This document shows, one piece after another, positions 3,389 to 34,027 of a stretch of 34,027 bases of DNA (position 1 is its first letter; the number at the start of each line of letters is the position of its first letter). The position numbers and the translations under genes were made by a program. The DNA lies in assembly GCA_011389655.1 (NCBI GenBank), contig JAABTX010000030.1:1-34027 (forward strand). The letters are read 5' to 3'. The notes beneath the pieces were generated by a model that saw only the letters and a list, made by a program, of their open reading frames with translations, was not told the origin of the DNA and made no database searches. Source of the stretch: Thioalkalivibrio sp. (GTDB taxonomy: Bacteria; Pseudomonadota; Gammaproteobacteria; Ectothiorhodospirales; Ectothiorhodospiraceae).

Positions 3389-3435
3389 GCGCTGCACAAT
3401 AGTTGCTGACGAACGCGTCACCGGAGTTTCCGCCG

Positions 3436-3816
3436 ATGATGATTAGCCTACTGAAGGGCAAGCTGCACAAGGCCCGGGTCACGCACTGCGAGCTCGAGTA
3501 CGAGGGTTCTTGCGCGATTGATATCCGACTGCTGGAGGCGGCCGGCATCCTGCCGTTCGAGCAGATCCAGATCTACAACATCGACAACGGCGAACGCTTC
3601 ACCACCTATGCGATCGAGGCCGAAGCGGGCTCGGGCGTGATCTCGGTGAACGGCGCCGCCGCGCACAAGGCCGCGGTCGGGCACCGGGTGATCATCTGCG
3701 CCTATGGCCAGCTGGACGCGGAGGAGGCCCGATCCTTCACCCCGAACCTGGTCTACCTGGGTCAGGGCAACCGCATCACGCACACCGGCCACCAGATCCC
3801 CGTCCAGGCCGCCTGA
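3436..3816 (+). CDS. panD: Aspartate 1-decarboxylase proenzyme
   Basis: PanD decarboxylates L-aspartate to beta-alanine using a pyruvoyl group formed by self-cleavage. The 126-residue protein contains YEGSCAID; with the ATG at 3436 the cleavage pair is Gly24-Ser25, the same numbering as the E. coli enzyme, which supports this start over the ATG at 3439. Other family features are the [13 protein letters not shown] opening, [33 protein letters not shown] and a C-terminal [15 protein letters not shown] at 3423-3426 is suitably placed. It completes panBCD and is followed by a palindromic repeat array. Confidence 0.97.
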
Positions 3817-3823
3817 CGCTGCG

Positions 3824-4110
3824 GCGTCCCCACCGGGCTGTGGTGGGTGCGCTTCGCTTCACCCACCCTACGGGTTACCTGCTTCCGCCCACGCGTAGGG
3901 TGGGCCAGGCGCAGCGTCCCCACCGGGCTGTGGTGGGTGCGCTTCGCTTCACCCACCCTACGGGTTACCTGCTTCCGCCCTACGCGTAGGGTGGGCCAAG
4001 CGCAGCGGGCCCACCGGGCTGTGGTGGGTGCGCTTCGCTTCACCCACCCTACGGCCTACCTGCTTCCGCCCACGCGTAGGGTGGGCCAAGCGCAGCGGGC
4101 CCACCGGGGA
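3824..4110 (+). repeat. Three ~90-bp tandem BIME-like palindromic units
   Basis: Three near-identical units start around 3831, 3921 and 4012 (periods 90 and 91 bp), with a partial fourth start at 4102. Each unit holds two hairpin halves. One has arms GTGGGTG/CACCCAC; the other has arms GTGGGCC/GGCCCAC (perfect in later units, degraded in the first). The halves are joined by an outer inverted repeat CCCACCCTACG / CGTAGGGTGGG. This is the architecture of paired inverted REP elements. The array fills the gap between convergent panD and ppc, where it may block read-through. Proteins read through it on either strand are repeat artefacts. Confidence 0.93.
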
Positions 4111-4115
4111 CCCCC

Positions 4116-6956
4116 TCAGCCCGTGTTCCGCATGCCGGCCGCGATCGCGTTGATCGAGCGCAGCAGCGGCGCAATCCAGGGGTTGGCCTCGTTCTCGTCC
4201 GAACGCGCCTCCTCGACGGCCCGCGACTCCCGCAGCAGATGGATCTGGATGCTGTTCAGCGGATCCAGGTAGGGATTGCGCCGCTGCAGCGACAGCGCGA
4301 GCAGCGGTGTCCCGGCCATCAGTGCATCGAGCTGCGAGACCAGCAGCACCTCCCGCACCGTGCGCTCGTACTCTTCCCGGATGCGCGCATAGACCGTGTC
4401 GGCAAGCTCGCGATCGCCGCACAGGCGGGCGTATTCGGCAGCGGTGCGCATGTCCGCCTTGGTCAGCGCCATCTCGCTGTTCGAGAGCAGCGAGCGGAAG
4501 AACGGCCACTCGACATACATCCGCCGCAACAGTTCGAGCCGGCCCGGATCGTCCCCCCGCCAGCCTTCCAGCGCACTGCCGATCCCGTACCAGGCGGGTA
4601 CGGTGTGACGGGACTGCCCCCAGCCGAAGACCCACGGAATGGCCCGGATGGACGACTTCGATCGGTCGGTCTTGCGCCGGTGCGAGGGCCGGGAGCCGAT
4701 GTTGAGGAAGCCGATCTCCTGCACCGGCGTGCTCTCGTAGAAGTAGTCGAGCAGGCCCGGGGTGCGGTCGACCAGATCGCGGTACGCATCCTCGCCGAGC
4801 GCGGCGAGCTCTCCCATCGTCACGCGATATTCGTCGCGGTCGCAGGTCGGTTCGCGGATCAGGCTGCGGCTGGCGAGGATCAGGCCGGTCGCGCCCATGC
4901 CGATCTCGTAGACCGCGGTCTCCACGTTGCTGTACTTGTAGGACAGCACCTCCCCCTGCTCGGTGAACTTGATGCGGCCCTGCACCGTGGCGGGAGGCTG
5001 GGCGAGGATGGACTCGTGGGTCGGACCGCCGCCCCGGCCAACGGTGCCGCCGCGCCCGTGGAACAGCTGGCAGCGGACACCGAAGCGCTCGCTGATCGCG
5101 ACGATCTTCTGCTGCGCCTCGTAGAGGCTCCAGCTGGAGGCGAGGATGCCGCCGTCCTTGCAGGAATCGGAGTAGCCGAGCATCACCTCCTGCAGATCGC
5201 CATTCGCGGCCAGCATGCGCCGGTAGCACGCGTTGCCGAACAGGCTGTTCAGCACGGCGTCGACGTGGAGCAGGTCCTCGATGGTCTCGAACAGCGGCGC
5301 GATCCGAAGATGGCAGAAGGGGTCGTCCCCGCTGCGGCCGGCGAGGGCGGTCAGCCGCCCGAGCAGCAGGACCTCGAGCACGTGCGACGCGGCATGGGTC
5401 ATGGAGATCACGTAGGTGCCGATCCCCTCCGCCCCGATCTCGTGGCGCATCTCGCGGATCACGTCGAACACGCGCAGCGTATCCCGCGCTTCCTCGTCGA
5501 GGGCGTCCCGATCGATCTCGGGCAGCTCCGGGCGATCGATCAGCCGGCTCAGCAGCTCCAGTCGGGATGCCTCGTCCAGGGAATGGTAGCCGGTTTCCAC
5601 TCCGGCCTGTGCGAGGACCGTCGCCACGGTGCGGGTGTGCACGCCGGATTCCTGCCGGACGTCGAGGTGATGCAAGTGGAAGCCGCAGGTCTCCACCAGG
5701 CGGATCAGGTCGGTGAGTTCCCGTCCGGCAATGTTGCGCTCGCCGTGGCTGACCAGCGAGTCGTGAATCACCCGGAGGTCCTCCAGAAAACCCGCCGCGC
5801 CGGCGTAGGCGGAACTGACGGGCAGGATCGCCGCCTCGCCCGAAAGGCGCCGATCGACCGTCGCCAGCGTCTCCTTCAGACGGAAAAGCATGATCTGGAG
5901 CTTGCGGCGATAGGGCTCCGTCTCGTAGCGGTCCCGGGCGCCCTGGAAGACCGCGGGCGCGATGCTGTCGTCCGCCTCCAGGCTGGCCTGAAAGGCCGCG
6001 GACGGCTTGCACATCAGTGACGAGTGCGTGAGGACATTGCGCAGCCGCACGACGCGCCTGAGGTACTCGCGCAATACCTGCTGCATCGCCAGCCGGCAGG
6101 CCATCGCGGTGACCGCGGGGGTGACGTTGGGGTTGCCGTCACGGTCGCCCCCGATCCAGGAGCCGAAGCGCAGGAAGGCCGGGATGCGGATCGGCAGGCC
6201 GCCGTCGGCCCGGGTTCCGTAACTGCGCCGCACGGCCTTCTCGAGGAACCGGTAGGCCAGCGGTATCGCCTCGAACAGGCTCTCCTCGAAATAGAAGAGA
6301 CCGTACTTGATCTCGTCGCGTACCTGGGGCTTCTTCACCCGCACCTCGTTGGTACGCCACAGGATCTGGATGTGCGCCTCCAGTTCCTCGATCAGCAGCT
6401 GGCGCTCGGCCGCGCCGATACGCGGGTTGTTGAGCTGGTCCGCGGTCCGGAACACGCGCCGCTGGTTCTCCATCGTGGTGCGTCGCCGGGCCTCGGTCGG
6501 GTGGGCGGTGAATACCGGTGTGTAACTGATCTGCGACAGCAGCCGCTCCAGTTCGGGTGCGGTGACGCCCTCGGCATGCAGGTCGCGCAGCGTCCGGTCG
6601 AAGGAGCCCACCCACAGGGGCTCCCCGCTGCTGACCTGGGCGCGGCGCCAGCGGTAGTACAGGTCTTCCTCGGCGATGTTGACCAGGCTGAAGTAGATGC
6701 TGAACGCGCGGATGACGCGCTCGGTCACCTCCGGGCTCTGTTGCACGATGAAGCGCATCAGCCGCTGGCGCAGCTGCGGATCTTCACGCTTGCGGAGGCT
6801 GACGAAGCCCTTGCGCAGGGTCTCCACGGCGCTGAAGACCTTCTCGCCCTCCAGCCGGCGTATGACCTGTCCCAGCAGATCGCCGAACAGACGAACCCGG
6901 GCGCGGAGTTCCCGGTCCCTGGGCAGAAACGGCTGGTCGCTTGGATGCGTAGTCAT
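4116..6956 (-). CDS. ppc: Phosphoenolpyruvate carboxylase
   Basis: PEPC carboxylates phosphoenolpyruvate with bicarbonate to oxaloacetate, replenishing the TCA cycle. The 946-residue protein carries the catalytic-His motif VFTAHPTEA (His152, equivalent to E. coli His138), GSWIGGDRDGNP near 265, HHLDVRQES near 430, GYSDSCKDGG at 594-603 and the glycine loop FHGRGGTVGRGGGP at 632-645. The C-terminus ends in the conserved R-N-T-G. The ATG at 6956 is preferred over an upstream in-frame start at 7055, whose extra 33 residues look unlike the family; a CAGGGG stretch lies just upstream. It is slightly longer than the E. coli enzyme. glgA lies upstream on the same strand. Confidence 0.97.
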   Translation of the reverse strand: MTTHPSDQPFLPRDRELRARVRLFGDLLGQVIRRLEGEKVFSAVETLRKGFVSLRKREDPQLRQRLMRFIVQQSPEVTERVIRAFSIYFSLVNIAEEDLYYRWRRAQVSSGEPLWVGSFDRTLRDLHAEGVTAPELERLLSQISYTPVFTAHPTEARRRTTMENQRRVFRTADQLNNPRIGAAERQLLIEELEAHIQILWRTNEVRVKKPQVRDEIKYGLFYFEESLFEAIPLAYRFLEKAVRRSYGTRADGGLPIRIPAFLRFGSWIGGDRDGNPNVTPAVTAMACRLAMQQVLREYLRRVVRLRNVLTHSSLMCKPSAAFQASLEADDSIAPAVFQGARDRYETEPYRRKLQIMLFRLKETLATVDRRLSGEAAILPVSSAYAGAAGFLEDLRVIHDSLVSHGERNIAGRELTDLIRLVETCGFHLHHLDVRQESGVHTRTVATVLAQAGVETGYHSLDEASRLELLSRLIDRPELPEIDRDALDEEARDTLRVFDVIREMRHEIGAEGIGTYVISMTHAASHVLEVLLLGRLTALAGRSGDDPFCHLRIAPLFETIEDLLHVDAVLNSLFGNACYRRMLAANGDLQEVMLGYSDSCKDGGILASSWSLYEAQQKIVAISERFGVRCQLFHGRGGTVGRGGGPTHESILAQPPATVQGRIKFTEQGEVLSYKYSNVETAVYEIGMGATGLILASRSLIREPTCDRDEYRVTMGELAALGEDAYRDLVDRTPGLLDYFYESTPVQEIGFLNIGSRPSHRRKTDRSKSSIRAIPWVFGWGQSRHTVPAWYGIGSALEGWRGDDPGRLELLRRMYVEWPFFRSLLSNSEMALTKADMRTAAEYARLCGDRELADTVYARIREEYERTVREVLLVSQLDALMAGTPLLALSLQRRNPYLDPLNSIQIHLLRESRAVEEARSDENEANPWIAPLLRSINAIAAGMRNTG

Positions 6957-8606: not shown

Positions 8607-10277
8607 ATGCCCCAGCCCCGACACGCCTCTGCCCGCTGGCCGGAGCTGGCGGACGCCCGTGGCCGGCTCCGCCCGGTGTCCCTGCGCGAGTTGCTGTCCG
8701 GCGACCCGGACCGCGTCGAACGCGATGTGCTGAATGCCGCTGGGCTGCGCCTGGACTGGACCCGCCAGCGGCTCGACGCCGCGGCCTGGACGGCGCTCTA
8801 TGCGCTGGCCGGGGATGCCGGGTGGGCCGATGCGCTGCGCCGCCAGTGGGATGGTGAGCACGTGAACACCACCGAGGACCGGGCCGCGCACCACATGGCC
8901 CTGCGCCTGCCGCGCGAGGCCAGCTGCCGGATCGACGGCCAGGACGTGGTCCCCGAGGTGCACCGGGTCCTCGATGCGATCGAATCCCTGGTCCAGCGGG
9001 TGCACGACGGCCGCCATGTCGGCTATTCCGGCCGGCCGATCCGCAGCGTGGTCAATATCGGCATTGGTGGCTCCGATCTCGGTCCGCGCATGGTCTGCGC
9101 GGCTCTGGCACCGCTCGCGACCACGACGGCCGAGGGCCATCCCCTGCGCATGCACTTCGTCTCCAACGTGGACGGTGCCGCGCTGGAGGCGGTGCTGCGC
9201 GAGTCGGACCCGGAGACCACGCTGTTCATCGTCGCCTCCAAGACCTTCGGCACGCAGGAGACCCTGACCAACGCGCGTTCGGCCCGGGCCTGGCTGCTCC
9301 GGCATACGGATCACCCCGAGGCGGTCGCGCGGCATTTCGTTGCGGTGTCAACGCATGCCGAGCGTGTCGCGGAGTTCGGCATCGACATCGCAAACATGTT
9401 CGGTTTCTGGGACTGGGTCGGCGGCCGGTACTCGGTGTGGTCGGCCATCGGCCTGCCGGTCGCGCTCTATCTCGGCATGGACGGTTTCCGCAACCTTCTC
9501 GCCGGTGCGCACGCGATGGATCGGCACGTGCTGGAGACCGTGGCGCCGGAGGCCAACGCGGCGCTGCGCATGGCGCTGGTGGACATCTGGAACCACAACA
9601 TCCTCGGCGCCTGCGCGCGGGTGGTGCTCCCCTACGACGAGCGCCTGAGACTTCTGCCCTCCTACCTGCAGCAGGCGGAGATGGAGAGCCTCGGGAAGGG
9701 CGTGCACGTCGATGGTTCCCCGGTGGAACGGGACACCGGTGCGCTGGTCTGGGGCGCCGTCGGTACCGACGGTCAGCACGCCTTCTACCAGCTCCTGCAC
9801 CAGGGCACGCGCTGGGAGCCGACGGAGTTCATCGGCGTCGCGCAGCCGGCGCATGGCCTGCCCGGTCATCACACGATCCTCCTGGCCAACCTGATCGCAC
9901 AGGCTGAGGCCCTGGCGCATGGCAAGACCGCCGCCGAGGCCGCGGCGGAGATGTCGGCGGACGGCGTTCCGGACTCCGAGGTGCAGCGGCTGGCACCCCA
10001 CCGCAGCTTCCCGGGCGACCGGCCGAGCACCGTGATCCTGATGGAGCGGCTCGATCCGCACAGTCTCGGGGCGCTGATCGCGCTCTACGAACACAAGATC
10101 TACCTCCTTGCGACCCTGTGGGAGATCAACGCCTTCGACCAGTGGGGCGTGGAGCTCGGCAAGCAGCTGGCGGGCCGCGTGCTCGAGGATCTTCGCTCTG
10201 ATGCCGGGACCCATGCGCATGACCCTGCAACGCTGGCCGCAATCGACTGGCTGCGGGCCCGGCTACCCGCCTCCTGA
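8607..10277 (+). CDS. pgi: Glucose-6-phosphate isomerase
   Basis: Pgi interconverts glucose-6-phosphate and fructose-6-phosphate. The 556-residue protein has the phosphate-binding GIGGSDLGPRM at about 152-162, SKTFGTQET near 211-219, the catalytic Glu360 in EMESLGKG, His391 in GTDGQHAFYQLLHQG and Lys519 in the C-terminal signature DQWGVELGK. The ATG at 8607 follows a GAGGAG ribosome site and gives the normal length; the frame is open far upstream, but that region is antisense to glgA. The stop is three bases before the next ATG, so the DUF938 gene is probably co-translated. It links hexose phosphates with the glucan genes here. Confidence 0.97.
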   Translation: MPQPRHASARWPELADARGRLRPVSLRELLSGDPDRVERDVLNAAGLRLDWTRQRLDAAAWTALYALAGDAGWADALRRQWDGEHVNTTEDRAAHHMALRLPREASCRIDGQDVVPEVHRVLDAIESLVQRVHDGRHVGYSGRPIRSVVNIGIGGSDLGPRMVCAALAPLATTTAEGHPLRMHFVSNVDGAALEAVLRESDPETTLFIVASKTFGTQETLTNARSARAWLLRHTDHPEAVARHFVAVSTHAERVAEFGIDIANMFGFWDWVGGRYSVWSAIGLPVALYLGMDGFRNLLAGAHAMDRHVLETVAPEANAALRMALVDIWNHNILGACARVVLPYDERLRLLPSYLQQAEMESLGKGVHVDGSPVERDTGALVWGAVGTDGQHAFYQLLHQGTRWEPTEFIGVAQPAHGLPGHHTILLANLIAQAEALAHGKTAAEAAAEMSADGVPDSEVQRLAPHRSFPGDRPSTVILMERLDPHSLGALIALYEHKIYLLATLWEINAFDQWGVELGKQLAGRVLEDLRSDAGTHAHDPATLAAIDWLRARLPAS

Positions 10278-19718: not shown

Positions 19719-19844
19719 GCGGCGGCTTGCCGCCGCCTTGCCCTGCAGGGGGCCTGCCCCCTGTCGCGGAAGCGAGCTTCCGCGAATGAAAGCGGGAGCA
19801 GGCTCCCGCAGTCCAGAAGTGCTTTTTGGGGGGTGGATTCCCCC
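19719..19844 (+). repeat. Cassette of five consecutive short hairpins between permease and adaptor genes
   Basis: Five inverted repeats follow each other closely. Stems are GCGGCGGC/GCCGCCGC (19719-19736), CAGGGGGC/GCCCCCTG (19746-19763), TCGCGGAAGC/GCTTCCGCGA (19764-19785), GCGGGAGC/GCTCCCGC (19792-19809) and GGGGG/CCCCC (19829-19844). The first four have exact 8-10 bp arms and 2-nt centres. They fill the 158-bp gap inside an otherwise tight exporter operon, ending just before the adaptor ribosome site. This is probably a mosaic of dispersed repeat units. In RNA it would be a strong block to 3' exonucleases or to read-through. Confidence 0.8.
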
Positions 19845-19867
19845 TGGTCCACGAGGAGAACATCCGT

Positions 19868-21070
19868 ATGAAGGTGCGCAAGAAGCTGCTCTGGGCCCTG
19901 ATCGCGCTGGTGGCGCTGGGACTGCTCGCCTGGACGCTGATGCCCGCGCCGGTGCCGGTCAGCGCGACGGCGGTGGAGAGCGGCCACTTCGCCGAGACCG
20001 TGGCGGAGGAGGGCCGCACGCGGCTGCAGGATTCCTTTACCGTGTCGGCGCCGATCGGCGGCTATCTGTTGCGGGTGGAGCTCGAGCCCGGCGATCCGGT
20101 GGAACGCGGTCAGGTGGTCTTCCGGATGGAACCGTATCCCGCCCCGGCACTGGATGCGCGCAGCCGCGAGTTGGCCCGGGAAGACCTCTCGGCGGCCCGG
20201 GCACGCCTGGAGACGGCCCGTGCCACCCTCGAGACGGAACAGGCGGAGGCCCGCTTCGCGGAGTCGGAGTATCAGCGTTACCGCCAGCTGCACGAGAACG
20301 AGCTCGTCTCCGCGACGGAAATGGAGCGGGCACGGAGTGTGCGGGACCGGCGGCGGGCCGCGGTCCGCGCGGCCGAGCACGCGGTCGAGGTGGCCCGGTT
20401 CGAGGTCGAGAGTGCACGGGCGATGGTGGACATCGCGAGCGGGCAGCGGATCGAGGATGACCAGCCACAGCTCGAGGTCCGCTCCCCGTCCGATGGCCTG
20501 GTGCTGGAACGGCACCGCTGCTGCGAGGGCACGATCAACGCCGGCGAACCCGTGCTGGAGGTCGGCAACCTCGGGGATCTGCAGGTCCAGGTGGACCTCC
20601 TGTCGATGGACGCGGTGCAGGTACGGGCGGGCATGCGGGTCCTGATCACCGGCTGGGGCGGGGACAAGACCCTGAACGGGACGGTCCGGCGGGTGCAGCC
20701 GGCGGGATTCACCAGGGTATCGGCGCTGGGTGTCGAGGAACAGCGGGTCCCGGTCATCGTCGATTTCGACGACGTGCAGCAGGCGGCCAGGTGGTTCGGG
20801 GTCGGGTTTCGGGTCGAGGCGGAGTTCGTGCTCTGGGAGGGCGATGACGTGCTTCAGGTCCCCACCAGTGCGCTGTTCCGCAGCGACGGACGCTGGTCGC
20901 TCTTCGTGGTGGCGGATGGCCGTGCGCAGAGGCGCGAGGTCCGGACCGGGCGGCGCAGCGGCATGAGCACCCAGATCCTCGGGGGTCTGCAGCCGGGCGA
21001 GATCGTGATCACGCACCCCGGCGACCGCGTGCGGGATGGCGTGCGCGTGAGTCCGGAACCGCGCGGCTGA
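19868..21070 (+). CDS. HlyD/RND-type periplasmic adaptor (membrane fusion) protein
   Basis: A 400-residue adaptor that would link the inner-membrane ABC exporter to an outer-membrane channel. Residues 5-23 form a single N-terminal membrane anchor. Lipoyl-like halves lie at about 57-90 (APIGGYLLRVELEPGDPVERGQVV) and 200-236 (VRSPSDGLVLERH...EVGNLGDLQVQ). Between them is a long charged helical hairpin (about 95-190) rich in Ala, Glu and Arg. Beta-barrel and membrane-proximal domains follow, with IVDFDD and GLQPGEIVITHPGDRV. A Cys pair (RCCEG near 217-220) in the second lipoyl half is unusual. GAGGAG at 19853-19858 sets the ATG at 19868. No outer-membrane TolC-like gene is nearby. Confidence 0.93.
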   Translation: MKVRKKLLWALIALVALGLLAWTLMPAPVPVSATAVESGHFAETVAEEGRTRLQDSFTVSAPIGGYLLRVELEPGDPVERGQVVFRMEPYPAPALDARSRELAREDLSAARARLETARATLETEQAEARFAESEYQRYRQLHENELVSATEMERARSVRDRRRAAVRAAEHAVEVARFEVESARAMVDIASGQRIEDDQPQLEVRSPSDGLVLERHRCCEGTINAGEPVLEVGNLGDLQVQVDLLSMDAVQVRAGMRVLITGWGGDKTLNGTVRRVQPAGFTRVSALGVEEQRVPVIVDFDDVQQAARWFGVGFRVEAEFVLWEGDDVLQVPTSALFRSDGRWSLFVVADGRAQRREVRTGRRSGMSTQILGGLQPGEIVITHPGDRVRDGVRVSPEPRG

Positions 21071-21092
21071 CCCCCAGCATGCCCCGGCCCCC

Positions 21093-21185
21093 TGTAGGAG
21101 CCAGCCTGCTCGCGAACGCGCCGCAGGCGCGCCCAACGCCGGGCGCCATCCGACATCCATTCGCGTGCAGGCACGCTCCTGCAGG
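21093..21185 (+). repeat. Degenerate palindromic repeat preceding the 94-bp array
   Basis: Outer arms TGTAGGAGC (21093-21101) and GCTCCTGCA (21175-21183) match with one mismatch, and smaller inverted pairs lie inside (GCGCC/GGCGC types). It is a 'TAGGAGC...GCTCCT' REP-like element related in style to the main array but diverged from it. Confidence 0.6.
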
Positions 21186-21192
21186 TGTGGTC

Positions 21193-21774
21193 GTGGGAGC
21201 GGCTTCCAGCCGCGATGCGGCGTCCTGCTGTGAGATGCCCAGGGCCATCGCGGCCAGAGGCCGCTCCCACAGGAGGCCGCCCGGGGTTCGTGGGAGCGGC
21301 TTCCAGCCGCGATGTGGCGTTGTGTCGAATGCCCAGGGCCATCGCGGCCAGAGGCCGCTCCCACAGGAGGCCGCTCCCACAGGAGGCCGCTCGGGGTTCG
21401 TGGGAGCGGCTTCCAGCCGCGATGCGGCGTTGTGTCGAATGCCCAGGGCCATCGCGGCCAGAGGCCGCTCCCACAGGAGGCCGCTCGGGGTTCGTGGGAG
21501 CGGCTTCCAGCCGCGATGCGGCGTTGTGTCGAATGCCCAGGGCCGTCGCGGCCAGAGGCCGCTCCCACAGGAGGTCGCTCGGGGTTCGTGGGAGCGGCTT
21601 CCAGCCGCGATGCGGCGTTGTGTCGAATGCCCAGGGCCATCGCGGCCAGAGGCCGCTCCCACAGGAGGCCGCTCGGGGTTCGTGGGAGCGGCTTCCAGCC
21701 GCGATGCGGCGTTGTGTCGAATGCCCAGGGCCATCGCGGCCAGAGGCCGCTCCCACAGGAGGCCGCTCCTACAG
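21193..21774 (+). repeat. Six-copy tandem array of a 75-bp palindromic element (94-bp period)
   Basis: Units start at 21193, 21290, 21400, 21494, 21588 and 21682. The last four are exactly 94 bp apart; the 110-bp step comes from a small internal duplication near 21365-21380. Each unit has a 75-bp core with outer arms GTGGGAGCGGC and GCCGCTCCCAC and inner inverted parts around CAGCCGCGATG / CATCGCGGCC, then a 19-bp linker. Copies are almost identical (e.g. the fourth core has CCGTCG for CCATCG). The core is a BIME-like pair of inverted REPs. It fills the 773-bp gap between convergent adaptor and amylosucrase genes. ORFs read through it on both strands are artefacts. Confidence 0.95.
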
Positions 21775-21843
21775 GCACACCCGGCGCCGGGTGGCGGGCC
21801 CTAGCGGCGATCGGGCGCCCGAAGACCAGCGCCCGGCTCCCGG

Positions 21844-23805
21844 CTAGCGCAGATTGCTGAGCCAGTAGAAGCGGTACGGGGGGACCACCAGCCGGTCGCT
21901 GAACAGTCGCGGCGTCTCTCCGGTGTGGAGATCCTGCAATGTGCCGCGCAGGTGGACGCTGCGGTAGCGCAGGTTGCCGAGTTCCAGATACTGGGGGTTG
22001 GCGTCGAAGTTCGCGACCACCAGCACCGAGGAGGCCATGTGCTGTTCCGGGTGGGTGCGCAGGAAGGCGAACAGATGCGGGTTCTCGAGATCGATCAGCT
22101 CGCGGTTGTTGAAATCGGCGAAGGCCGGCACACCCTTGCGCACCGCGATCATCCGCTTCAGACCGTCGAAGATCCGCTGCTCCACGCTGCCGTGCTGGTA
22201 CCGGCGCCCGGCCTTCTCCCAGTCGATGCGCGGCCGGTTCATCCAGCGGCTGTCGCCGGCCTTGTTCGGGTCCTGCAGGTAGCTGTATTCGCTGAGTGTG
22301 CCAATCTCGTCGCCGTAGTAGAGCAGCGGTATGCCGCCAAACGACAGGATCATCCCGTGCAGCAGCAGGATGCGCTGGATCGCGCGGTCGATCGCCTTTT
22401 CGTCGCCGGCCTCCAGCGCACTCTCGAGCCCGGCGAGCGACGCGAGTGAACCGGAGATCCTGGCATCGCCGGTCTTCTCGTTGCGGCCGAAGGGCTGGCC
22501 GCGCGCGTCCGAGCCCTCGTACGCGCCGGTAAAGTAGTCGACCAGGAACCTGCGGTGGGCGAAGGGCTCGTAGCCGGCCGCGATGATGTCGCGGTCGTCG
22601 AAGCCCAGGCCGATGTCGTCGTGGCAGCGCACGTAGTTCAGCCAGGTCGCGCGGTCCAGCTTGTTGGGGAGGCTCTGGATGCCGAGATTCAGCAGGCGGG
22701 CATTGCGGGTGGCCATCGCGTCCCAGAGCAGTGCCATGAAGGTCGCGTTGTAGGCGATCTCGCACTCCTTCGCGATCACCGCGTCCTCGCCGAAGTACTT
22801 GATGATCTCCAGCGGCGCGACGATGGCCTCGGCGATGAACAGCACGCCCGGCGCGGTGACCTGGCAGCAGTCCTTCATCAGCTGCAGGATCAGGTGCGCC
22901 TCACGCTCGTTCTGGCTGGTGGTGCCGATCTTCTTCCACAGGAAGGCGACGGCGTCCAGGCGCAGGATGTCCGCGCCCTGGTTCGCCCAGAACAGCAGCA
23001 CGTCCAGCATCTCGATGAAGACGTCGGGATTCCCGTAGTTCAGGTCCCACTGGAAGGAGTTGAAGACCGTCATCACCCACTGGTCCATCTCCGCGTCCCA
23101 GGTGAAGTTCCCGGGCGAGGTCTCCGGGAAGATCTCGGGCATGGTCTCCTCGAACATGTCCGGGATGTCGCGGTTGGGGAAGATGTAGTAGTAGTCCTGG
23201 TATTTCCTCTCCCCGGCACGCGCCCGGCGCGCCCACCCGTGCTCGTCGGAGGTATGGTTCACCACCACGTCCAGCGTCAGCAGCATGCCGCGCCTGCGCA
23301 TGCTCGCGGCAAGCTGCTGCAATTCCTCGAGCGTGCCGACGCGCGGGTCGATGCGGCGGAAGTCACTGATTGCGTACCCGCCGTCGCTGGCCTTCTCCGG
23401 GCACAACAGCATCGGCATGATGTGCAGCATGTTCACGCCCAGTTCCTGCAGATAGGGCACGTGCGAGCATACGCCGTCGAGGTTCCCGGCGAAGCCGTCG
23501 GCGTACAGCGCCATTGCCACCCACTCCTGGCTCAGGAACCAGTTGTGGTTGTGTTCCCGTTCCTTGTCCTGCGCCTCGAGCTCGGCAGAACGCTCGATGT
23601 AGCGCGCCGCCATCACCTCCACCAGCTTGATGCTCTTGTCCCTGAAGTCCTCGCGGGATCCGTACAGGGCATGGAACAGCGAGTGGATCGCGTAGAAGTT
23701 GGCCCCCAGCCGGGTGTAGAAATGGCGCAGGTCCTGACGCCGTATCTCCGGCTTCAGCTCATCGAGGATCTCGTTGAGCAGGGAGTGGGATACCTGTTCG
23801 TACAT
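21844..23805 (-). CDS. Amylosucrase (GH13 subfamily 4)
   Basis: A 653-residue glycoside hydrolase that by family makes alpha-1,4-glucan and fructose from sucrose without nucleotide sugars. It aligns by recall along its length with Neisseria polysaccharea amylosucrase, including the helical N-terminal domain. Catalytic residues are in place: nucleophile Asp284 (ILRLDAVAF), acid/base Glu326 (LFIAEAIV) and transition-state Asp396 (RCHDDIG). Further matches are KASDGGYAISDF, NHTSDEHGWA, FNSFQWDLNYGNP and GGIPLLYYGDEIGTLSEYSYLQDPNKAGDSRW. ATG 23805 follows CGGAG. No signal peptide is visible, so it is probably cytosolic. Sucrose hydrolase is the main alternative. Repeat copies flank it on both sides. 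Confidence 0.93.
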   Translation of the reverse strand: MYEQVSHSLLNEILDELKPEIRRQDLRHFYTRLGANFYAIHSLFHALYGSREDFRDKSIKLVEVMAARYIERSAELEAQDKEREHNHNWFLSQEWVAMALYADGFAGNLDGVCSHVPYLQELGVNMLHIMPMLLCPEKASDGGYAISDFRRIDPRVGTLEELQQLAASMRRRGMLLTLDVVVNHTSDEHGWARRARAGERKYQDYYYIFPNRDIPDMFEETMPEIFPETSPGNFTWDAEMDQWVMTVFNSFQWDLNYGNPDVFIEMLDVLLFWANQGADILRLDAVAFLWKKIGTTSQNEREAHLILQLMKDCCQVTAPGVLFIAEAIVAPLEIIKYFGEDAVIAKECEIAYNATFMALLWDAMATRNARLLNLGIQSLPNKLDRATWLNYVRCHDDIGLGFDDRDIIAAGYEPFAHRRFLVDYFTGAYEGSDARGQPFGRNEKTGDARISGSLASLAGLESALEAGDEKAIDRAIQRILLLHGMILSFGGIPLLYYGDEIGTLSEYSYLQDPNKAGDSRWMNRPRIDWEKAGRRYQHGSVEQRIFDGLKRMIAVRKGVPAFADFNNRELIDLENPHLFAFLRTHPEQHMASSVLVVANFDANPQYLELGNLRYRSVHLRGTLQDLHTGETPRLFSDRLVVPPYRFYWLSNLR

Positions 23806-23953
23806 GGGGCTCCGGGGGGATGCAGGGCGACCCGGAACGCGACGTCACCGCCCCGGGCGCAGGAGTGTGGCGGACATGATCGGCAACCCGGCGCCCCAGC
23901 GCAAACGGTCCAGGCGATCCCGCGCCGGGGATGGCCGCCCAGGGGCGCCTCCT

Positions 23954-24080
23954 GTGGGAGCGGTCTCCTGTGGGAGCGGCCTCTGGCCGCGATGGCCCTG
24001 GGCACCTCACAGAACGCCGCGTCGCGGCTGGAAGCCGCTCCCACGACCCTTGCAGGAGAGAAGCCAGAAGCCGCTCCCAC
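23954..24080 (-). repeat. Inverted copy of the 75-bp palindromic element plus partial copies
   Basis: The 75-bp stretch 23970-24044 is the reverse complement of the array unit at 21193-21774, with a few differences (for example GGGCACCTCACAG in the centre). A truncated arm precedes it at 23954-23967, and another partial arm ends at 24080 (AGAAGCCGCTCCCAC). The element lies upstream of the amylosucrase start. The remaining gap 23806-23953 shows no gene. Confidence 0.9.
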
Positions 24081-33964: not shown

Positions 33965-34027
33965 GTAGGAGCGGCTTCCAGCCGCGATGCCCTTGGGCCC
34001 CGCGATGCCCGATCGCGGCCCGAGGCC
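33965..34027 (+). repeat. Further copy of the GTGGGAGCGGCTTCCAGCC-type repeat, cut by window end
   Basis: GTAGGAGCGGCTTCCAGCC starts at 33965, 22 bp after the parE stop, and matches the left half of the 94-bp array unit apart from A for G in the arm. The following GATGCCCTTGGG and CGATCGCGGCCCGAGGCC resemble the right half. It continues beyond the window. Confidence 0.8.

What the first reader, a model, noticed from the sequence alone, without database searches (positions are those of the whole stretch)
21193..21774. Near-identical six-copy array of a 75-bp palindrome
Four successive exact 94-bp steps with very few differences indicate recent tandem amplification or active homogenisation. Each core is a pair of inverted REP-like halves joined by an asymmetric ~19-bp centre. 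The array lies between convergent genes, where it could stop transcription, bind gyrase/IHF as BIMEs do in enterics, or fold into a long structured RNA.
Basis: partly seen in the sequence, partly recalled or inferred. Interest (0 to 1): 0.5.

Follow-up and report, generated by a model that had tools for sequence, protein, structure and literature searches.

The report
Tandem array of REPIN mobile palindromes
This is a six-copy tandem run of a small mobile DNA palindrome (a REPIN) that is scattered through this bacterium's genome; such elements and such runs are already known from other bacteria, so it is a tidy new example, not a new kind of thing.

Summary
The array is real. Six copies of a 75-bp palindrome (25-bp arm, 25-bp centre, 25-bp arm; the first copy is 78 bp) lie between two convergent genes in a draft genome whose nearest named relatives are Thioalkalivibrio. 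It is a dispersed family: 23 nt of one arm occur exactly 114 times in this genome, 40 times in sister genome G003, 0-2 times in 20 other genomes chosen by handle, and at most 5 times in other genomes of a 369-genome class sample. Each arm is a small REP hairpin; two inverted REPs make a REPIN. In 15 of 37 clusters examined the REPIN is repeated, with locus-specific steps; copies are more alike within (0.94) than between clusters (0.86), and in 6 of 15 a spacer end copies the local flank. So a REPIN inserted here and was then duplicated, at least partly with flanking DNA. Eight relatives keep the same gene pair with only 141-204 bp between. No RAYT transposase flanked by this REP was found, but contigs often end at these repeats, so that and the copy number stay open. 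Thioalkalivibrio REPs and tandem REPIN clusters of Pseudomonas are in print. New member of a known kind; host function untested.

The parts
21193..21270 (+). REPIN copy 1 (Y arm 21193-21217, Z arm 21246-21270; 78 bp, 28-bp centre)
21290..21364 (+). REPIN copy 2 (75 bp)
21365..21399 (+). 35-bp spacer between copies 2 and 3 with an extra 16-bp piece (GAGGCCGCTCCCACAG), which makes this step 110 bp
21400..21474 (+). REPIN copy 3 (75 bp)
21494..21568 (+). REPIN copy 4 (75 bp)
21588..21662 (+). REPIN copy 5 (75 bp)
21682..21756 (+). REPIN copy 6 (75 bp)
21757..21774 (+). right flank; its first 12 bases (aggaggccgctc) recur at the start of inter-copy spacers (12 of 12)
21090..21190 (+). element of another REP-like family (GTAGGAGCCAGCCTGC type) directly left of the array; 43 matches in the genome, reverse-strand matches of the same places included
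23970..24044 (-). single dispersed REPIN of the same family upstream of the GH13 gene; two copies at the orthologous site in sister genome G003
33965..33989 (+). single Y head (1 mismatch) 38 bp from the end of contig C204
19826..21070 (+). left convergent gene: RND/HlyD-type periplasmic adaptor subunit (TIGR01730, 126 bits, cut-off 94.9)
21844..23805 (-). right convergent gene: GH13-type (maltose glucosyltransferase/amylase-like) protein, 653 aa, below every NCBIfam cut-off shown

Best explanation
The array is a tandem cluster of a REPIN, a REP doublet that forms a hairpin and is a non-autonomous mobile element. Shown: two inverted REP hairpins per unit, over a hundred exact copies of the head in this genome, conservation that falls off at the element's edges, location outside called genes in the clusters examined, and local tandem repetition with copies more alike within than between loci. 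Inferred: a REPIN was copied into the gap between the two genes by a RAYT (Y1/HUH) transposase acting on the REP hairpins as single-stranded DNA; afterwards replication slippage or unequal exchange duplicated the REPIN with some flanking DNA. The effect on the host is probably slight; the hairpins may limit read-through or protect the 3' ends of the two convergent transcripts. The confidence given is for the identity (tandem REPIN cluster); for the duplication mechanism I would say about 0.65.
For: 114 exact Y 23-mers in G000, 40 in G003; of the other 20 genomes of that search six have 1-2 and 14 none. In a class sample 6 of 369 genomes have any, G000 included, the next highest 5 (G364). 64 REPIN doublets in 37 clusters in the stretches examined; 15 multi-copy clusters, all copies in one orientation in 14 and by the script's default in the 15th (C69, one Z-Z doublet); within-cluster identity 0.943 (49 pairs; 0.926 with clusters weighted equally) against 0.857 between clusters (1967 pairs); 0 of 2000 label shuffles reach it. 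Spacer start matches the own right flank in at least 10 of 12 bases in 5 of 14 arrays against 6 of 196 comparisons with other loci; spacer end matches the own left flank in 2 of 15 against 3 of 210. Outside the element the information is 0.1-1.1 bits per base in the 35 of 37 clusters with full flanks, while most arm positions are over 90% conserved. Local REP hairpins: 269 of 270 (Y) and 264 of 270 (Z) Watson-Crick cells, against 959 of 1125 for the long hairpin. 0 of 37 clusters inside a called gene; 10 of 25 classifiable ones convergent. At the GH13-upstream site, spanned on both sides in both assemblies, G000 has one REPIN and G003 two. Eight relatives with the same gene pair have only 141-204 bp there and no Y/Z head with up to 6 mismatches. 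In seven other genomes of the genus whose RAYT flanks I read, the gene has REP-type palindromes on both sides, GTGGGAG-headed on both sides in six (by eye); one of these proteins scores 145.6 bits against NF047646, cut-off 80.
Against: No RAYT flanked by this REP family was found in G000 or G003: the four G000 RAYT-family genes (two over the curated cut-off: C11 199 bits, C336 87.7 bits) have no Y/Z heads on their fetched stretches, nor has the one in G003; C11 is flanked by a different REP (GTAGGGTGGG). The G004-type RAYT matches nothing in G000 or G003 better than about 30% identity. Transposition was not observed. In 9 of 15 arrays neither spacer end matches its own flank at 10 of 12 bases, and here only the right-flank end does (12 of 12; left 4 of 12). 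Three of the 15 clusters (C69 0.77, C302 0.82, C228 0.85) are no more alike inside than the between-cluster mean. This array supplies 15 of the 49 within-cluster pairs. In 8 of 35 right flanks a partial arm follows the element, so its Z-side edge is not always clean. At the other site spanned on both sides in G000 and G003 (C147) the number of heads is equal, 3 and 3. Copy number rests on a draft assembly.
Confidence: 0.9

Rival explanations
1. The array is a selected functional unit like a BIME-2: hairpins between convergent genes that block transcription in both directions, protect mRNA 3' ends, or bind gyrase or IHF.
For: Convergent gap; strong folding (RNA z -13.66 for the array; DNA z -6.19 for one unit); clusters lie in convergent gaps in 10 of 25 classifiable cases against 18 of 101 gaps of at least 50 bp in the same stretches, those gaps included.
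Against: Eight relatives keep the gene pair without the array, so it is not needed there; no T-run terminator in 20900-22000; no binding was tested; a bias to gene 3' ends is also what is left after selection removes harmful insertions (inference).
Confidence: 0.2
2. Copy number, or part of the array, is an assembly artefact.
For: 14 contig ends in the fetched set lie within 100 bp of a head; contig C295 starts inside a 100-bp-step array; only a draft of 367 contigs is held.
Against: Contig C204 runs through the array, with differing spacers and point differences between copies; arrays with other steps occur at other loci. That the family exists does not depend on the copy number here.
Confidence: 0.25
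3. A simple minisatellite that grew from local sequence by slippage, with no mobile element.
For: Tandem units with locus-specific steps and 15-16 bp terminal repeats show that local duplication does act.
Against: The same 75-bp unit sits at dozens of places in the genome and its conservation falls off at its edges.
Confidence: 0.03
4. A structured non-coding RNA or CRISPR-like array.
For: Regular repeat-spacer look; strong folding.
Against: Spacers are near copies of one another; no Rfam match at gathering score; the unit is palindromic and dispersed.
Confidence: 0.02

Closest known systems
REPINs and tandem REPIN clusters of Pseudomonas fluorescens SBW25 (Bertels and Rainey 2011, PMC3116915; passages and section 13 read)
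   Same: Inverted REP doublet forming a hairpin; mostly single, some in ordered tandem clusters of nearly identical REPINs including flanking sequence; extragenic.
   Different: Other head sequence; no adjacent RAYT with the same REP found here; six copies against four REPINs in the largest ordered cluster reported there. That paper found higher-order arrangements of clade I REPs mainly in P. syringae and P. fluorescens, with two classes in P. putida; its text names none in its Thioalkalivibrio genome.
GTGGGAG-type REPs of Pseudomonas putida (Nunvar et al. 2010, PMC2817692; passages of the text and of Table 1 read)
   Same: Head TGTGGGAGCGG..., small stem, CGCGA tail in several entries.
   Different: Stem and loop (GCGGCT TCC AGCCGC) differ from the entries seen.
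Thioalkalivibrio REPs: HL-EbGR7 GTAGGTCGGCCTTCAGGCCGAC (PMC2817692) and K90mix GTAG-1 elements (GTAG/CGTC paper of 2013, PMC3733652; passages read)
   Same: Genus as then named; inverted doublets predominate; REP families differ between isolates.
   Different: The HL-EbGR7 sequence differs; the K90mix consensus is in a figure that is not held, so the relation is open.
E. coli BIMEs
   Same: REPs in alternating orientation, intergenic, with tandem runs (as described in PMC2817692).
   Different: Head unlike the E. coli REP listed in PMC2817692; gyrase/IHF binding untested.

Membership tests
REPIN | two REPs in inverted orientation with a short spacer, able to form a hairpin | tested here: met
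   64 doublets, 45 of exactly 75 bp; fold of one unit z -6.19
REPIN | REP with a small stem-loop and a GTAG/GTGG-type 5' tag | tested here: met
   tag GTGG in 25 and GTAG in 20 of 45 Y arms by the third base; 6-bp stem paired in 269 of 270 cells in Y and 264 of 270 in Z, 45 elements
REPIN | high-copy, dispersed, extragenic | tested here: met
   114 exact heads; 0 of 37 clusters inside called genes (home-made codon model with visible errors, see full report)
REPIN | the doublet is the mobile unit: homology between copies ends at its edges | tested here: met
   35 of 37 clusters profiled, 0.1-1.1 bits per base outside; but 8 of 35 right flanks carry a partial arm
REPIN | cognate RAYT in the genome, usually with the same REP beside it | tested here: inconclusive
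   RAYT-family genes present but none with Y/Z heads in G000 or G003; contigs end at the REPs; direct rayt-BIME association was reported for about one third of RAYTs (PMC2817692)
tandem REPIN cluster | near-identical REPINs repeated in tandem | tested here: met
   six copies here, mean within-array identity 0.97, lowest pair 0.94
tandem REPIN cluster | repeat unit includes flanking sequence | tested here: met
   spacers repeat with the unit; here spacer start = right flank 12 of 12, spacer end vs left flank only 4 of 12; 6 of 15 arrays match at 10 of 12 or better on at least one side
E. coli BIME | E. coli-type REP sequence | tested here: not met
   head differs from the E. coli REP given (compared by eye)
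E. coli BIME | gyrase/IHF binding | not testable with these tools
   needs binding assays
MITE with target-site duplication | target-site duplication | not tested
   flanks were listed but no formal test was made
intrinsic terminator | GC stem followed by a T-run | tested here: not met
   0 found in 20900-22000

The most novel reading that the evidence does not exclude
The Y/Z REPIN population of this lineage has expanded recently without a cognate RAYT, either mobilised in trans by a RAYT that serves another REP family (such as the C11 gene flanked by GTAGGGTGGG REPs) or kept up mainly by hairpin-seeded tandem duplication after the RAYT was lost.
Probability: 0.12. Interest if true: 0.45.

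Novelty: new member of a known kind. Interest (0 to 1): 0.2.

Why it matters
It adds a clear REPIN family in a sulfur-oxidiser genus, with several loci at different stages between a single REPIN and a tandem cluster, and one orthologous site where copy number differs from the sister genome. It suggests why such assemblies break, and warns that a RAYT set between REPIN arrays may be missing from a draft genome. It changes no view of what REPINs are.

Tried and rejected
Tried without result: Rfam at gathering scores, tRNA scan, terminator and promoter scan of 20900-22000; Y/Z heads beside RAYT genes (with up to 5 mismatches, with up to 6): none beside a G000 or G003 RAYT, only weak heads (5-6 mismatches) beside one G011 RAYT; the array unit in the 80 GH13-bearing loci kept (at E up to 1e-4 printed no hit; at E up to 1 gave two 19-base matches at E 0.7). 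G003 cannot show the HlyD-GH13 gap: its contig starts inside the GH13 gene and its best HlyD match is a 33% partial one. The RAYT-like genes C349 of G000 and C124 of G003 have similar flanking DNA by eye and no heads of this family; the blastp comparison took a wrong reading frame for C124 and is not used. Rejected: CRISPR, structured RNA, pure minisatellite.

Counting limits: the 163 heads, 64 doublets and 37 clusters come from 35 fetched stretches chosen from blast matches and RAYT hits, plus the window (three stretches, the RAYT contigs, have none); the genome-wide pattern search shows further heads, for example on C15, C46, C301 and C313, that were not fetched. 19 of 64 doublets that are not 75 bp, the first copy here among them, were left out of the pair counts; 2 of 37 clusters lacked full flanks. 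For G000-G003, 26 stretches of G003 were compared with 36 of G000. RAYT flanks were read at 7 of the 17 places that match the G004 RAYT at 58% identity or more.

Full report
What is there. Between 21193 and 21756 lie six copies of an imperfect palindrome: 25-bp arm Y, a 25-bp centre, and an inverted 25-bp arm Z. The first copy is 78 bp, the others 75 bp. Core starts step by 97, 110, 94, 94 and 94 bp. The array lies between two convergent genes, a HlyD/RND-type adaptor (19826-21070, +) and a GH13-type protein (21844-23805, -). The window is the whole of contig C204 of a 3.46-Mb, 367-contig genome. The nearest named records for the GH13 protein (L041-L045, 92-97% identity) are titled Thioalkalivibrio; the genome itself carries no name, so the genus is inferred from them.

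A dispersed family. The 94-bp unit has 101 matches in the genome, reverse-strand matches of the same palindromic places included. The first 23 bases of Y occur exactly 114 times, against 0 for the reversed control. Among 22 genomes chosen by handle, G000 included, G003 has 40, G023 and G017 have 2 each, G021, G037, G038 and G039 have 1 each and 14 have none. In a sample of 369 genomes of the class, 6 have any: G000, G364 (5), G150, G383 and G017 (2 each) and G196 (1). So the population is large in G000 and G003 and small or absent in the others searched.

The unit is a REPIN. In 45 elements of exactly 75 bp, the small stems inside Y and Z are Watson-Crick in 269 of 270 and 264 of 270 cells, while the long Y:Z pairing holds in 959 of 1125, plus 53 G-T. 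Y and Z differ in the top pair of the local stem, T-A against C-G, which keeps each small hairpin but puts a G-T wobble and an A-C mismatch into the long one. So the best-kept structure is the REP hairpin, as expected if a Y1 transposase reads it (inference from the known RAYT-REP system). In the 35 of 37 clusters with full flanks, information outside the element is 0.1 to 1.1 bits per base, highest at -1, so the doublet looks like the mobile unit; 8 of 35 right flanks carry a further piece of a Z arm, so that edge is not always clean.

Tandem duplication. In the 35 stretches fetched plus the window there are 64 doublets in 37 clusters; 15 clusters hold two to six copies, with steps that differ from locus to locus. 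All copies face one way in 14 of the 15; in the 15th (C69) one doublet is Z-Z and its direction was set by the script. Identity is 0.943 within clusters (49 pairs) and 0.857 between them (1967 pairs); 0 of 2000 shuffles reach the observed value; this array supplies 15 of the 49 pairs, and with clusters weighted equally the mean is 0.926. Three clusters (C69, C302, C228; 0.77-0.85) are not more alike than the between-cluster mean. If the unit was duplicated with its flanks, spacers should start like the right flank and end like the left flank. Starts match in at least 10 of 12 bases in 5 of 14 arrays, against 6 of 196 comparisons with other loci; ends in 2 of 15, against 3 of 210. Six of 15 arrays match on at least one side, C101:32828 on both. 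Here the start matches 12 of 12 and the end 4 of 12. The other nine give no such sign. The inner haplotype of copies 2-6 is shared by a single element on contig C33, its closest dispersed relative in the set.

Comparison between species. Eight relatives (G010, G012, G022, G023, G024, G037, G038, G039) keep the HlyD-GH13 pair with 141-204 bp between the matched ends, against 779 bp measured the same way here; none has a Y/Z head with up to 6 mismatches in these loci. In the named records L041-L044 the same gap, read by eye, holds other palindromes, and L045 has other sequence there; these records may be the same genomes as some of the eight. At two sites both flanks are spanned in G000 and G003: upstream of the GH13 gene G000 has one REPIN and G003 two (flanks 95.9% and 91.5% identical); on C147 both have three heads. 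Five other stretch pairs share flanks on one side only, so their copy numbers are not compared.

Transposase. G000 has four RAYT-family genes, two over the curated cut-off of 80 bits (C11, 199; C336, 87.7) and two just under it (C38, 76.7; C349, 73.9). C11:3886-4323 is flanked by GTAGGGTGGG palindromes, a different family that also forms the three-copy array at 3829-4108 of this window. None of the four has Y/Z heads on its fetched stretch (for C336, C38 and C349, exact GTGGGAG only, for C11). In seven other genomes of the genus a RAYT with an open frame of 156-181 codons has REP-type palindromes on both sides, in six with GTGGGAG heads on both sides (by eye; seven of 17 comparable places); that protein has no close match in G000 or G003. 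A RAYT gene packed between REPIN arrays would sit where these assemblies break: in the fetched set, 14 contig ends lie within 100 bp of a head, while about 2% of the assembly lies that close to an end (own arithmetic: 734 ends x 100 bp over 3.46 Mb). Absence of a cognate RAYT is thus inconclusive.

Function. All 37 clusters lie outside genes called with a simple codon model; of 25 with both neighbours called, 10 are convergent, 12 codirectional and 3 divergent; the other 12 lie at an edge of a contig or stretch; of all 101 gaps of at least 50 bp in the same stretches (REPIN gaps included), 18 are convergent. The model has visible errors: at 9348-10220 it calls an antisense frame where the + frame reads to me like a phosphoglucose isomerase (not searched). 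A preference for convergent and codirectional gaps is reported for REPs in general (PMC3733652). No T-run terminator is predicted. The array is absent from relatives with the same gene pair, so a needed role is unlikely; a mild effect on transcript ends is possible and untested.

Literature seen. Bertels and Rainey 2011 (PMC3116915; passages, section 13) define REPINs, describe ordered tandem clusters of nearly identical REPINs including flanks in P. fluorescens, and include Thioalkalivibrio HL-EbGR7; section 13 names higher-order clusters in P. syringae, P. fluorescens and P. putida. Nunvar et al. 2010 (PMC2817692; passages) list a REP for HL-EbGR7 and GTGGGAG-type REPs in Pseudomonas. The GTAG/CGTC paper of 2013 (PMC3733652; passages) reports GTAG-1 elements in Thioalkalivibrio K90mix and REP clusters reiterated with flanking DNA. 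A modelling paper (PMC8049555; passages) treats REPIN persistence. A 2025 REP survey tool (PMC12306157) was seen in a listing only. The search for Thioalkalivibrio with 'repetitive extragenic palindromic' returned only the first three; none of the passages read gives this exact sequence, but the K90mix consensus and the supplements were not read.

Verdict. A real tandem REPIN cluster of a lineage-specific REP family. Identity is well supported; the duplication mechanism is inferred from anatomy and only partly visible in the spacers; mobilisation and function are untested.

Noticed in passing
window 3829-4108: A second tandem array, 3.1 copies of a 90-bp unit with GTAGGGTGGG-type palindromes, also in a convergent gap (genes 3403-3816 + and 4116-6956 -); 91 matches, mostly weak, in the genome, among them on both sides of the RAYT gene on contig C11.
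   Followed up: partly
window 21090-21190: A third REP-like family (GTAGGAGCCAGCCTGC type), 43 matches in the genome, several in tandem (e.g. C361:6483-6914).
   Followed up: partly
window 21351-21392 and 23947-23983; G000 C238:19997-20053: 15-16 bp tandem repeats of the outer end of the Z arm (GAGGCCGCTCCCACAG), as if the element's end slips on its own; a partial arm follows 8 of 35 clusters.
   Followed up: partly
G000 C301:5121-5551, C313:4053-4185, C46:15598-15776, C15:4084-4270: Further regular runs of the Y head (steps of about 102, 55, 39 and 66 bp) seen in the pattern search; not fetched.
   Followed up: no
G021 C72:478-500 and C72:2036-2398: The only exact Y head in G021 lies about 1.5 kb from a Y1 transposase gene (open frame 145 aa; 127 bits to PF01797, only 27 bits to the RAYT model) on the same contig. 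Chance or a link, not examined.
   Followed up: no
L041 7960-8165, L042 2099-2300, L043 7960-8110 (same HlyD-GH13 gap): Relatives carry other palindromic repeats in the same gap, such as GGGAGCTTGCTCCCGC units and CACGGAAAACACGGA / CCGTGTTTTCCGTG pairs (read by eye).
   Followed up: no
window 21844-23805: The GH13-type protein is 71-97% identical (best segment) in the best 80 of 543 confirmed loci, mostly titled as gammaproteobacteria, yet is far below the cut-off of each of the 25 NCBIfam families shown.
   Followed up: no
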